Positions 8,658-38,100 of a stretch of DNA of 64,000 nt are shown here, piece by piece (positions within the stretch are counted from its first letter, which is position 1; each line of letters opens with the position of its first letter). This stretch comes from Baekduia alba (GTDB lineage: Bacteria; Actinomycetota; Thermoleophilia; Solirubrobacterales; Solirubrobacteraceae). The position numbers and the translations under genes are program-made. The notes beneath the pieces are model-generated. The model saw nothing but the letters and a program-made list of their open reading frames with translations. It ran no database searches and was not told the DNA's origin. The DNA lies in contig NZ_CP114013.1 in assembly GCF_028416635.1 (NCBI RefSeq), forward strand, positions 1,178,001 to 1,242,000. The letters run 5' to 3'.

Positions 8658-9428
8658 ATGGAGCTCGAGCTGCAGGGCAAGGTCGCCGTCGTCACGGGCG
8701 GGAGCAAGGGCATCGGGTTGGCGGTCGCGCAGACGCTGGCCGCGGAGGGGGTCGCGGTCGTGGTCGGCGCGCGCAGCGTGGAGCAGCTGCCGGAGATCGA
8801 CGGCGTGAGCGGCTTCGCGGTCGACCTGTCCTCGGCCGGTGGGCCGGCGGCGCTCGTCGCCCACGCGGCGGAGCGGCACGGCGGCGCGATCGACATCCTG
8901 GTCAACAACGTCGGCGGCGCGCCGGTGCGGCTGGAGGGCTTCCTCGCGATCGACGACGACGCGTTCGCCGCGACCATGAACCTCAACTTCTACTCGGCGC
9001 TGCGCGCGATCCGGGCCGTGCTGCCCGGGATGATCGAGCGCGGGTCGGGCGCGATCGTCAACGTCGCGTCGGTCAACGCGTTCCTCGCCGATCCCAACGT
9101 CATCGACTACAGCGCGGCGAAGGCGGCGCTGGTCAACGCGTCGAAGTCGCTGTCGCAGGAGCTCGGCCCCAAGGGCGTCCGGATCAACGACGTCTCGCCG
9201 GGACCGGTGGCGACCGACCTGTGGCTGGGCGACGCGGGCGTCGCGGCCCAGGTCGCCGCGGCCGGCGGCGGCGACGCGAAGGCCGGCGCCGAGGCGGCGA
9301 TGGTCACCGGCCGCTTCACCACGCCCCAGGAGGTCGCGACGCTCGTCGCGCTGCTCGCCTCGCCGCGCACCGCGAACGTCACCGGCTCGCAGTACGTGAT
9401 CGACGGCGGATTGGTGAAGACGCTCTAG
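8658..9428 (+). CDS. SDR-family oxidoreductase
   Basis: A complete 256-residue classical SDR: cofactor loop VAVVTGGSKGIGLAVAQTLA, NNVGG in place of NNAG, catalytic Ser in AIVNVASVNA, and YSAAKAALVNASKSL with the YxxxK pair, ending in SQYVIDGGLVKTL typical of the FabG-like group. It would reduce or oxidise a carbonyl/alcohol with NAD(P)H; the Gly-rich loop has no strong hint of which. There is a roughly 20-residue Ala/Gly-rich stretch (about 195-215) in the substrate lid. Its TAG stop shares a CTAG with the convergent small gene at 9425. The intact protein contrasts with the decayed SDR at 6809. Confidence 0.92.
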   Translation: MELELQGKVAVVTGGSKGIGLAVAQTLAAEGVAVVVGARSVEQLPEIDGVSGFAVDLSSAGGPAALVAHAAERHGGAIDILVNNVGGAPVRLEGFLAIDDDAFAATMNLNFYSALRAIRAVLPGMIERGSGAIVNVASVNAFLADPNVIDYSAAKAALVNASKSLSQELGPKGVRINDVSPGPVATDLWLGDAGVAAQVAAAGGGDAKAGAEAAMVTGRFTTPQEVATLVALLASPRTANVTGSQYVIDGGLVKTL

Positions 9429-12275: not shown

Positions 12276-12891
12276 ATGGCTGAGCTCGCTGCCGCGGTGA
12301 AGAGGTTCGTCGACGACGTCGTGCTGCCCGGCGTCGGCGTCGCCGACCTCGCGCCGGCGTGCACGCTCTCGCAGGGCTGGATGTCCCCTAAACGCCCACC
12401 ACGCGCCGGGCGCCGAGGTGCTCGGTGACGGCCGCGGGTCCGGCGCGCGTCAGATGCTCGACGCGCTCGACGTCGGGCGCGCCAACGTCGCCTGCCGCGC
12501 GCGCGGCATCGTCGACCGCGCGCTGGTCTGCGCGGTCGACGAGGCGACCGGCCGCGCGATCGGCGACGGCGTCCTGGGCGACCACACCCACGCCCAGCTG
12601 CGGGTCGGCGAGCTGACCGCGCGCCGCGCCGCCGTCTCGGCGCTGGTCGACGTCGCCGCCCGCGCGGTGGACGCGCGCGCCGATGACGCCCGCGAGCTGG
12701 CGACGGCCGCCAAGGTCGTGGCGTCCGACACCGCGGTCTGGGCCGTCGACCGCGCCGCGCGCCTGGCCGCGTCGCGCTCCTTCGCCGCTGGCGACGAGCT
12801 CGCGCGCCTGCGCCGCGACGCGCCCCAGACCCAGATCGGCGCGGGCGCCAACGACGCGTTGTTGATGACGTTGGCGAAGCCGGCGCTCTAG
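12276..12891 (+). pseudogene. acyl-CoA dehydrogenase, deleted and frameshifted remnant
   Basis: Two pieces in different frames. The first (ATG 12276, ending at 12428) begins LAAAVKRFVDDVVLPG, like the N-terminal helix of acyl-CoA dehydrogenases, and soon becomes nonsense. The second (from 12418) reads GARQMLDALDVGRANVACRA, then RGIVDRALVCAVDEA, TAAKVVASDTAVWAVDRAA and ARLRRDAPQTQIGAGANDAL, the C-terminal helical domain with the conserved RDA-x-I-x-G end. The middle of the protein, including the FAD and acyl-binding beta domain, is gone. Intact enzymes are about 380 residues; only about 185 codons remain. The stop shares a CTAG with the convergent metallopeptidase gene. Confidence 0.75.
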
Positions 12892-35528: not shown

Positions 35529-35924
35529 ATGGCGCCCGAGCCCGCGACCTGGTTGGTCTCGGCCACCCCAGAGCAGATCTCCGTCCTGCGCACCGAAGTG
35601 ACGGCGTACGCGCAGCGGGTGGGGATCGCCGACGGCCGCCTGCCGGACGTCCGCCTCGCCGTCTCCGAGGCCGCGACCAACGCCGTGCTGCACGCCTACC
35701 GCGACCGCGACCCTGGCCACATCCGGGTCGACGCGCACGTGCAGGATGACGGCCACCTGCGGATCGTGGTCGAGGACGACGGCTTCGGCCCGCTGCCGCG
35801 CCCCGACTCGCCCGGCCTCGGCCTCGGGCTGCCCACGATCGCCTCGGTCGCCGACGCCGTCGAGCTCTCGGCCGGCTCCGCCGCGGGCGCGCGCCTGTCG
35901 ATGCTCTTCGCGACCGGCGGCTAG
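35529..35924 (+). CDS. anti-sigma factor-type ATP-binding protein (RsbW-like)
   Basis: A 131-residue GHKL ATPase domain. The N box is VSEAATNAVLHAYRDRD, the G1 box VEDDGFGPLPRPDSP and the G2 box GLGLGLPTIASVAD. Such small proteins bind and inhibit sigma factors or phosphorylate STAS antagonists. No sigma or STAS gene is next to it; a STAS protein lacking the acceptor Ser is encoded at 1133. The ATG at 35529 is chosen because the frame upstream of it is low in coding character. The TAG stop is part of the CTAG that was duplicated by the adjacent IS element, so the insertion left this protein unchanged. Confidence 0.87.
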   Translation: MAPEPATWLVSATPEQISVLRTEVTAYAQRVGIADGRLPDVRLAVSEAATNAVLHAYRDRDPGHIRVDAHVQDDGHLRIVVEDDGFGPLPRPDSPGLGLGLPTIASVADAVELSAGSAAGARLSMLFATGG

Positions 35925-36640
35925 CTGTAAGTCCCGAGCAGGTTGTTCAGGCGGGTGATGGGTGTTTGTCGCCCGATGCCTGCGTGTTTGCGGCGATGGT
36001 TGTAGGTGAACAGCCAGCCGTCAAGGGCGGCGGCGCGGTCTGCGCTGTTGGTGTAGATCGCGCCGTAGGCCCAGCCGCCGAGCATGGTCCGGATGAAGCG
36101 TTCTGCCTTGCCGTTGGTCTGGGGTCGGTAGGGCCGGGTGCGTAGGTGCTTGAGCCCGAGCGTTTTGCAGGCGATGGCGTGGATGGTGGAGCGGTAGGCG
36201 CTGCCGTTGTCGGTCATGACCGCTTCGACGGTCATGCCGTGGCTTTCAAAGAACGCGATCGCGCGGCGCAGAAACCCGATCGCGGTGATCGCTTTCTCGT
36301 CTTCGAGGACCTCGACGTAGGCCAGGCGCGTGGCGTCGTCGATCGCGACATGAACGAACTCCCAGCCCAGCTGGTCGGCCTTGCGGTGATAGCCGGCCTG
36401 TCGCTTGCCCGTCAGGCCGGTGATCCGGTGTCCGACCCGGGCGATCCGCCCGAGCTTTTTGATGTCGATGTGGATCAGCTCGCCGGGCCGCGCTCGCTCG
36501 TAGCGCCGGGCGGGCTCCAAGCCCAGCCGTCCCAACCGGCCCATGTCGATCGAGCTCAGGATGCCCGAGACCGTCGAGAGCGCCATGCCGAGAACATCGG
36601 CGATCTCGGGGCCGGTCATCCGCAACCGTCGCACAACCAC
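35921..36640 (-). CDS. IS481-family transposase, N-terminally shortened
   Basis: A roughly 237-residue DDE transposase. It keeps one HTH (RMTGPEIADVLGMALSTVSG) and the whole catalytic domain: PGELIHIDIKKLGRI with the first Asp, AVMTDNGSAYRST with the second and TNGKAERFIRTMLGGW with the Glu, then YNHRRKHAGIGRQTPITRLN. Full proteins have about 320 residues, so the first HTH of some 75 residues is absent and activity is doubtful. GGAGG lies nine bases before GTG 36634, an alternative start to GTG 36640. The stop codon TAG comes from the duplicated CTAG target, outside the element itself. Confidence 0.88.
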   Translation of the reverse strand: MVVRRLRMTGPEIADVLGMALSTVSGILSSIDMGRLGRLGLEPARRYERARPGELIHIDIKKLGRIARVGHRITGLTGKRQAGYHRKADQLGWEFVHVAIDDATRLAYVEVLEDEKAITAIGFLRRAIAFFESHGMTVEAVMTDNGSAYRSTIHAIACKTLGLKHLRTRPYRPQTNGKAERFIRTMLGGWAYGAIYTNSADRAAALDGWLFTYNHRRKHAGIGRQTPITRLNNLLGTYS

Positions 36641-36685
36641 CAGCCTCCAAGGAGGCCCGGATGAACAACGTCCTCAGGAACTACA
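35926..36685. mobile_element. IS481-family insertion sequence, short form
   Basis: A 760-base element with imperfect inverted repeats: 35926-35949 (TGTAAGTCCCGAGCAGGTTG...) and the complement of 36662-36685 (TGTAGTTCCTGAGGACGTTG...), 19 of 24 matching. It is flanked by identical GCTAGC hexamers (35920-35925 and 36686-36691), a six-base target duplication of the NCTAGN kind known for IS481. Typical family members exceed 950 bases, so internal sequence at the transposase 5' end is missing. The insertion lies exactly in the CTAG that formerly held the stops of two convergent genes. Confidence 0.88.
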
Positions 36686-36686
36686 G

Positions 36687-37559
36687 CTAGCCGACCGGCG
36701 CTCCGGCACGCTCGGGGTCGGCCGCCGCGACGCCCGTCGGCCCTTCCGGCTGGGCCGCGTGCAGCGCGACCCCGGCGGCCACGGCGGCGACGCCGAGCAC
36801 CTCGGCCGCGCTCGGGATCTGGGTCAGGACGACGACGCCGATGACCGTGGCGATGGCCGGCAGCAGCGACACCATCAGGCTGTAGGTCGCGCGCGGCAGC
36901 CGCGTCAGCGCGAGCTGGTCGCAGACGTAGGGGATGACCGACGAGCTGATGCCGACGCCCACCGCGGCCAGCAGCGCGACCGGGTCGGCGAAGACCGGCG
37001 CCGCCGCCCAGCCCGCGATCGGCGTGACGACCACGGCCGCCACGAGCATCGACGCGCCCAGGCCGTCGACGCCGTCCAGCGCCGGGCGCTTGGCGACGCG
37101 GTCGGCCAGCACGATGTAGGACGCGAAAAGGCCGGCGTTGGCGAAGGCGAAGGCCAGGCCGGTCGCGCCGCCGGCCAGGTGGATCCCGGTGAGCGCGTAG
37201 ACCCCGCCGATGGCGAGCAGCAGCGCGGCGAGGTTGCGCGGGGTCCGGGCGCCGAGCGCGGCCAGCGCGATGACCGGGAAGAACTCGATCGCCGCCACGG
37301 TCCCCAGGTGGAGGCGGTCGATCGCGAGGTAGAAGCAGCAGTTCATCAGCGCCAGGCAGGCGCCCCAGGCCAGGATCAGCCGCGCGTCGTCGCCCCGCAG
37401 GTCGATGCGCCGCCACGGCCGGCGCCACGCCGCGAAGATCAGCGCCGCCGTCGCGATCCGCAGCCACGCGACGCCGAGGACGTCGACGCGGGCGAACAGG
37501 AGGACCGCGAAGGCGGGCCCGAGGTAGTGGAAGGTGGCGCTGACAGCGAAGTACCGCAT
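36687..37559 (-). CDS. EamA/RhtA-type exporter
   Basis: A 290-residue protein with ten predicted membrane helices in two EamA repeats. It opens MRYFAVSATFHYLGPAFAVL, contains WGACLALMNCCFYLAIDRLH and LGTVAAIEFFPVIALAALGA in the first repeat and SSVIPYVCDQLALTRLPRAT with SLMVSLLPAIATVIGVVVL in the second, matching RhtA-like threonine/homoserine exporters. An AsnC-family gene is divergent, 64 bases away, which supports amino-acid export under its control. The ATG at 37559 is chosen because the longer frame is unlike the family. The TAG stop is in the right-hand CTAG copy made by the IS insertion. Confidence 0.9.
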   Translation of the reverse strand: MRYFAVSATFHYLGPAFAVLLFARVDVLGVAWLRIATAALIFAAWRRPWRRIDLRGDDARLILAWGACLALMNCCFYLAIDRLHLGTVAAIEFFPVIALAALGARTPRNLAALLLAIGGVYALTGIHLAGGATGLAFAFANAGLFASYIVLADRVAKRPALDGVDGLGASMLVAAVVVTPIAGWAAAPVFADPVALLAAVGVGISSSVIPYVCDQLALTRLPRATYSLMVSLLPAIATVIGVVVLTQIPSAAEVLGVAAVAAGVALHAAQPEGPTGVAAADPERAGAPVG

Positions 37560-37623: not shown

Positions 37624-38100
37624 ATGCCTGCGAATGGACGGCTGAACGGGCTCGACGACGTCGATCGTGATCTGCTGGTCCAACTGCAGGACGACGCGCG
37701 GCTCAGCCTCGCCGAGCTCGGCCGCCGCGTCGGCCTCTCGTCGCCCGCCGTGGCCGAGCGCGTCCGGCGCCTCACCGACGAGGGCGTCATCCGCGGCTTC
37801 AGCGCCGACGTCGACCCGCGCGCGCTCGGCTACGCGCTGAGCGCGATCGTCCGGATCCGGCCGGCGCCGCGGCAGATCGCGAAGGTCGCCGACCTCGCGC
37901 GATCGACGCCCGAGGTGGTCGAGTGCCATCGGATCACGGGGGAGGACTGCTTCTTCATGAAGGTCCACGTCCGCGACGTCGAGCACCTCGAGGCCGTCAT
38001 CGACCGCTTCACGGTCTTCGGGCAGACCACGACGTCGGTGATGCAGACCTCGCCCGTGCCGCGCCGCGGCGTCGCGGTCGCGGCCGGGAGCGAGTCCTAG
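37624..38100 (+). CDS. Lrp/AsnC-family regulator
   Basis: A 158-residue protein. The N-terminal HTH (LDDVDRDLLVQLQDDARLSL, then AELGRRVGLSSPAVAERVRR) is followed by the RAM ligand domain (GYALSAIVRIRPAPRQIAKV, VVECHRITGEDCFFMKVHVR). Lrp/AsnC proteins sense amino acids and often control exporters, as expected for the divergent EamA gene. The ATG at 37624 fits the family length; the longer frame would read through the promoter. Its TAG stop shares a CTAG with the stop of the convergent GNAT gene. Confidence 0.92.
   Translation: MPANGRLNGLDDVDRDLLVQLQDDARLSLAELGRRVGLSSPAVAERVRRLTDEGVIRGFSADVDPRALGYALSAIVRIRPAPRQIAKVADLARSTPEVVECHRITGEDCFFMKVHVRDVEHLEAVIDRFTVFGQTTTSVMQTSPVPRRGVAVAAGSES

What the first reader, a model, noticed from the sequence alone, without database searches (positions are those of the whole stretch)
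35920..36691. IS481-type element inserted in a CTAG that held both stop codons of two convergent genes; the duplication restored both
GCTAGC flanks the element on each side. Removing the element and one copy leaves the RsbW-like gene (TAG stop) and the EamA gene (TAG stop) ending in one shared CTAG. The six-base duplication therefore rebuilt both stops, leaving both proteins intact. The transposase also takes its own stop TAG from the target copy. IS481 is known to prefer NCTAGN, so such overlapping stops are ready-made neutral landing sites.
Basis: partly seen in the sequence, partly recalled or inferred. Interest (0 to 1): 0.75.

Follow-up and report, generated by a model that had tools for sequence, protein, structure and literature searches.

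The report
Jumping gene nested between two stops
A small, internally deleted jumping gene of a known family sits exactly where two neighbouring genes end, and because its favourite landing sequence contains the stop signal of both genes, landing there left both genes with their stops; similar stop-saving landings have been reported before.

Summary
A 760-bp IS481-family element (35926-36685) lies between two GCTAGC copies, and both neighbours (RsbW-like +, EamA -) end in TAG inside CTAG. Joining the flanks puts both stops in one CTAG. One of those copies also sits at a convergent shared CTAG, the other at a single TAG stop.

The pattern is largely passive. In 464 kb sampled from this genome CTAG occurs 172 times outside IS copies against 1133 expected; 82 of the 172 are TAG stops, 16 of them shared by convergent genes. 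Of 32 related insertions, 21 fall on TAG stops, 6 of these convergent: not significantly above supply (P=0.08-0.09; 0.05-0.12). The target-supplied transposase stop and the sparing of a target gene's stop are already in print (PMC2516522, PMC6794481; passages read). No same-species empty site was available; three congeners lack a CTAG at this junction, so sharing before insertion is inferred. A known kind with a neat double-stop instance.

The parts
35920..35925 (.). left target duplication GCTAGC; holds the RsbW-like TAG (+, 35922-35924) and the transposase TAG (-, CTA at 35921-35923)
35926..36685 (-). internally deleted IS481-family element, 760 bp
35921..36640 (-). truncated transposase ORF, 239 aa: DDE (rve/rve_3) core kept, N-terminal leucine-zipper/HTH part lost by an in-frame 273-bp deletion
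36633..36685 (-). 5' end of the element (53 bp), 98% identical to the full-length copies; deletion junction at its inner edge
36686..36691 (.). right target duplication GCTAGC; holds the EamA TAG (-, CTA at 36687-36689)
35529..35924 (+). RsbW-like anti-sigma/HATPase_c_2 gene, 131 aa; last residues and stop position match congener G004 (tails differ in G006 and G001)
36687..37559 (-). EamA-type transporter gene, 290 aa; variable C-terminal tail ends at the CTAG
9425..9428 (.). empty convergent shared CTAG in the window (comparison)
12888..12891 (.). empty convergent shared CTAG in the window (comparison)
38097..38100 (.). empty convergent shared CTAG in the window, 1.4 kb from the insertion (comparison)

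Best explanation
An IS481-family element inserted into a GCTAGC in which the RsbW-like gene and the EamA gene already shared their TAG stops. The staggered cut duplicated NCTAGN, so each gene kept a CTAG and hence its stop, and the transposase, which in this group usually has no stop of its own, took its TAG from the copy at its 3' end. The copy (or its parent) lost 273 bp in frame, the DNA-binding N-terminus, and is probably unable to move by itself, though both ends are intact and it could in principle be moved by the two full-length copies. Landing at gene ends follows mainly from target sequence: CTAG is rare in this genome and about half of the survivors are TAG stops. Shown: anatomy, duplication, deletion, family, CTAG supply. 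Inferred: that both genes shared the CTAG before insertion, that both proteins still work, when the deletion happened, and that the copy is immobile on its own.
For: Sequence and ORFs. Two full-length relatives in the genome, one (L008) also at a convergent shared CTAG and one (L007) at a single TAG stop. Transposase stop lies in CTAG in 36 of 43 order-level copies and in 54 of 69 readable loci of a named collection; leaving out 11 readable loci that repeat the order-level set, 47 of 58, one of them (L233) an internal stop. Convergent pairs sharing CTAG exist without the element: 16 of 172 non-IS CTAGs in 464 kb of this genome; in congener G003 the EamA relative itself ends at a CTAG shared with a different convergent gene, without the element. 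Gene ends match unoccupied congener loci: cupin ...PADLPV-stop with the identical TCTAGC (L008 vs G006), peptidase ...II(G/E)-TAG (L007 vs G006), RsbW ...TGG-stop (window vs G004). IS481 family model: full-length copy 282 bits against a cut-off of 224.
Against: Three congeners with the same convergent RsbW/EamA order have TGA for RsbW, no CTAG at the junction, and an EamA frame that runs into RsbW, so the shared CTAG is not seen in any empty relative of this junction; in two of them (G006, G001) the RsbW tail also differs. At L008 the congener keeps the cupin CTAG but the GH3 gene ends at its own TGA across a 20-bp spacer missing here, so there the sharing could postdate insertion. L008's two hexamers differ at the first base (TCTAGC/GCTAGC).
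Confidence: 0.82

Rival explanations
1. The element inserted into a CTAG that was the stop of only one gene (RsbW); the EamA gene ended elsewhere, and its unconstrained tail later came to use the duplicate CTAG as its stop.
For: The EamA tail is not conserved and in three congeners does not end here; at L008 the congener shows one gene at CTAG and the other with a separate TGA.
Against: Requires a separate later change (an indel shifting the frame or removing a spacer) on the right side; convergent CTAG sharing is common without the element (16 of 172 non-IS CTAGs in 464 kb).
Confidence: 0.13
2. The element actively prefers stop codons or convergent gene ends beyond its CTAG requirement (can be true together with the best explanation).
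For: 21 of 32 order-level insertions at TAG stops and 6 of 32 at convergent shared stops, against 82 and 16 of 172 CTAGs in this genome, or 125 and 20 of 256 in three genomes; at least 2 of 3 own copies convergent, P=0.024 against this genome's CTAG supply.
Against: Fisher P=0.08-0.09 (any stop) and 0.05-0.12 (convergent); in the other set 18 of 36 at stops, only 2 convergent; all 68 together P=0.18 for stops against the three-genome supply; survivor bias works in the same direction.
Confidence: 0.12
3. Pattern produced by selection: insertions into other CTAGs occur but are purged, leaving those at stops and between genes (can be true together with the best explanation).
For: Only 1 of 32 insertions called inside a gene, and that a weak call.
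Against: CTAGs inside genes are already scarce (13 of 172); 1/32 versus 13/172 is not different (P=0.70).
Confidence: 0.3

Closest known systems
TnRErm46 / ISRe46 of Rhodococcus equi (IS481 family; PMC6794481, passages read)
   Same: NCTAGN direct repeats; right repeat gives the transposase its TAG; left repeat gives some target genes (parB) their TAG, so their function is not interrupted
   Different: single target-gene stops in the passages seen; 6.9-kb transposon with cargo; here two convergent genes share the target, and the element is a small deletion derivative
ISLxc2 and ISLxx4 of Leifsonia xyli (IS481 family; PMC2516522, passages read)
   Same: transposase stop codon lies in the host NCTAGN, said to be as described for other family members
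   Different: no statement on target-gene stops in the passages seen
IS481 of Bordetella
   Same: L230 (Bordetella genomosp. 2): TGTGAAGATTCAATAGGT end, GCTAGC on both sides, transposase stop in the target, gene end at the target. That this end is that of IS481 itself is recalled
   Different: about 44% protein identity to the copies here
CTAG overlap of convergent genes (PMC2174442, passages read)
   Same: names CTAG among four tetramers that end two convergent genes
   Different: no mobile element in the passages seen

Membership tests
IS481 family | transposase matches the IS481 family model (NF033577, cut-off 224 bits) | tested here: met
   full-length copy in the same genome 282.2 bits; the window copy 219.4 bits, just under the cut-off, with profile positions 1-76 unmatched
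IS481 family | N-terminal leucine-zipper/HTH part (PF13011 and HTH models) | tested here: not met
   present in the full-length copy, absent from the window copy: the window copy is a defective derivative, not an intact member
IS481 family | DDE integrase core (rve, rve_3) | tested here: met
   window copy hits PF00665 and PF13683; invariant D150, D235 and E271 of alignment A1 are present in the window ORF; that these three are the catalytic residues is recalled
IS481 family | terminal inverted repeats beginning TGT | tested here: met
IS481 family | 6-bp NCTAGN target duplication | tested here: met
   window hexamers identical; survey; family-wide majority of 6 bp stated in PMC10045372 (passages read)
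Active insertion sequence | transposes | not testable with these tools
   needs an assay; dN/dS 0.20 against the full-length copy cannot say whether constraint predates the deletion

The most novel reading that the evidence does not exclude
In genomes that have lost most CTAG, CTAG-targeting elements without a stop codon of their own are steered to gene ends, with a real preference for convergent shared stops beyond CTAG supply, so that the shared CTAG works as a double-sided safe harbour.
Probability: 0.2. Interest if true: 0.5.

Novelty: new member of a known kind. Interest (0 to 1): 0.3.

Why it matters
It gives a simple, countable reason why some insertion sequences do little harm: their target contains a stop codon on both strands, the target is scarce inside genes, and the duplication rebuilds the stop. 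The double-stop case and the counts of CTAG supply were not seen in the listings and passages of the paper searches made (open-licence papers only), but the principle was already in print.

Tried and rejected
A 4-bp (CTAG) or 5-bp duplication with a fixed outer base, suggested by L008 (TCTAGC/GCTAGC): rejected, because L012/L096 (GCTAGG on both sides), L073/L074 (CCTAGC) and others share all six bases while the element ends stay the same. First-base-only mismatches (5 of 32) outnumber last-base-only ones (1 of 32) in the order-level set but not in the other set (3 and 4 of 36); unexplained.

Hairpin targeting: 3 of 32 order-level targets are centred in long inverted repeats (stem score 8 or more), against 1 to 3 of 255 non-IS CTAGs depending on the arm length scored (Fisher P 0.005-0.02, which replaces a comparison that mixed arm lengths), but 0 of 36 targets in the other set. 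One of several tests, left as a lead. A mild symmetry at the first two flanking bases appears in both sets.

Empty site: looked for in 146 family genomes by EamA (30 of 37 matches inspected, RsbW found beside EamA in 4 including the window's own) and in 7 genus genomes for L008 and L007. Only other species were found. Rfam on L098 and L100: no match. Paper searches gave little of use; one listed PMC5337935 (start of abstract seen only), on CTAG in Salmonella falling largely in intergenic sequence.

Rows dropped: the order search gave 58 matches in 42 of 232 genomes. I fetched 40 regions, not all matches, plus two full-length own copies; 32 copies were kept, chosen by hand from the pairs because both ends were found. 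L069, L076, L086, L092, L094, L095, L097, L101, L103, L104, L105 and L106 were left out. L081 and L093 have one mutated hexamer and were kept. In the named set, 12 of 80 loci were left out because their coordinates appear to repeat order-level matches; of the other 68, 36 were classified, 24 unresolved, 8 too short. Gene calls come from my own small codon-model caller; a generic model agreed on 66 of 67 stops in the window.

Full report
What is there. The window carries a 760-bp element at 35926-36685 between two copies of GCTAGC. To its left an RsbW-like HATPase_c_2 gene (+) ends in TAG within the left GCTAGC. To its right an EamA-type transporter gene (-) ends in TAG within the right GCTAGC. 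The element's own ORF (-, 239 aa) is an integrase-core transposase and ends in TAG within the left GCTAGC, so RsbW and the transposase now overlap by four bases, as RsbW and EamA do in the joined flanks.

The copy is defective. The same genome (5.86 Mb, one contig) holds two identical full-length copies of 1033 bp (L007, L008). The window copy is 85% identical to them over 708 bp and 98% over its first 53 bp, and lacks 273 bp between. The deletion is in frame and removes the leucine-zipper/HTH part found in the full-length protein (PF13011 and HTH models), leaving the DDE core. The full-length protein scores 282 bits against the IS481 family model (cut-off 224); the deleted one scores 219. dN/dS between them is 0.20 over 236 codons, which cannot date the deletion.

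The other two copies. L008 lies between a cupin gene (+) and a GH3 gene (-), both ending in TAG within the flanking CTAG: a second convergent double stop. L007 lies at the TAG of an M24 peptidase gene. So all three copies sit at stops and two at convergent ones. Against this genome's CTAG supply the chance of at least 2 of 3 convergent is 0.024, and of 3 of 3 at any stop 0.11.

Supply of targets. In 464 kb of this genome CTAG occurs 172 times outside the IS copies, against 1133 expected from base composition. Of the 172, 66 are at a single TAG stop, 16 at a stop shared by convergent genes, 77 between genes and 13 inside genes, although 88% of the sequence is called as coding. 19 of 73 convergent pairs overlap by four bases at CTAG; 3 of these are transposase-neighbour pairs created by the IS copies. 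Samples of 200 kb from each of two relatives give 58 and 26 CTAGs against 495 and 502 expected, with 32 and 11 at stops.

Survey. A protein search of 232 genomes of the order found 58 matches in 42 genomes. Of 43 copies read, 36 have the transposase TAG inside CTAG. Of 32 with both ends resolved, 15 are at single stops, 6 at convergent shared stops, 10 between genes and 1 (weak call) in a gene. Compared with supply: any stop 21/32 versus 82/172 (P=0.08) or 125/256 (P=0.09); convergent 6/32 versus 16/172 (P=0.12) or 20/256 (P=0.053); inside genes 1/32 versus 13/172 (P=0.70). In a named collection of 80 loci, 69 were readable and 54 of these, from Actinomycetota to Proteobacteria, have the stop in CTAG; without the readable repeats of the order-level set it is 47 of 58, one of them (L233) an internal stop. 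Of 36 classified insertions there, 16 are at single stops, 2 at convergent stops, 16 between genes, 2 in genes. All 68 together: 39 at stops (P=0.18 against the three-genome supply). So the placement is largely what a CTAG-cutting element would give in such genomes.

Empty sites. No genome of the same species without the element was available. Congeners G006, G004 and G001 have RsbW and EamA adjacent and convergent without the element, but RsbW ends in TGA, no CTAG is present at the junction, and the EamA frame runs into RsbW. RsbW ends at the matching codon in G004 (...TGG-stop), but has a different tail in G006 and G001. In G003 the EamA relative ends at a CTAG shared with another convergent gene, not RsbW, and no element is there: the same kind of site, empty. 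At L008 the congener G006 has the empty TCTAGC at the identical cupin end, but the GH3 gene ends in its own TGA across a 20-bp spacer that is missing here; at L007 the peptidase ends at the matching TAG in G006. These support that the stops were kept in place for RsbW, cupin and peptidase. For EamA and GH3, stopping at CTAG before insertion is inferred.

What is known. PMC2516522 (passages read) states in 2008 that the transposases of ISLxc2 and ISLxx4 have their stop within the host NCTAGN, as in other family members. [quoted passage not shown] PMC2174442 (passages read) lists CTAG among four-base convergent overlaps. PMC10045372 (passages read) gives 6 bp as the commonest duplication in the family. 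PMC11708052 (passages read) reports an IS481-family element in REP sequences of P. fluorescens. The convergent double-stop case was not seen in the listings of searches, which cover open-licence papers only.

Taxonomy. Several order-level regions nearly coincide in coordinates with named records (Solirubrobacter soli, Svornostia abyssi, Solirubrobacteraceae MAGs), so the window most likely belongs to that family; this is an inference.

Verdict. Interest 0.3.

Noticed in passing
L100 3709-5300, L098 3706-5294, L101 (genome G194, by coordinates apparently Svornostia abyssi): An IS110-family element (455-aa DEDD transposase in L100, PF01548/PF02371) interrupts three IS481-type transposases at the same codon of the TDN motif, in two differing IS481 copies, with the same junction sequence: a site-specific nest.
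   Followed up: partly
L091 3935-5302 (genome G228): A second IS110-family element lies inside the 5' part of an IS481-type element that itself sits at a convergent shared CTAG.
   Followed up: partly
L072, L098, L102 target sites: Three insertion targets are the centre of 11-12-bp inverted repeats around CTAG; rare among other CTAGs (1 to 3 of 255 by arm length).
   Followed up: partly
464 kb sample of the window's genome; 200 kb each of G086 and G194: CTAG is depleted about 6.6-fold (172 vs 1133 expected); two relatives show about 8.5- and 19-fold depletion. The cause was not examined.
   Followed up: no
L164 (genome G003), EamA relative: This EamA relative also ends at a CTAG shared with a convergent gene, a different one, with no element there.
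   Followed up: partly
G000:C1:4149582-4149752 (L004/L009): A decayed fragment of about 171 bp of the same transposase without recognisable ends.
   Followed up: no
L106 (G001 C1:4054451-4055931; also L017, L020): Two 3'-end fragments of a related element, about 1.3 kb apart and in opposite match orientations, flank other sequence in G001 and may mark a rearranged or broken copy.
   Followed up: no
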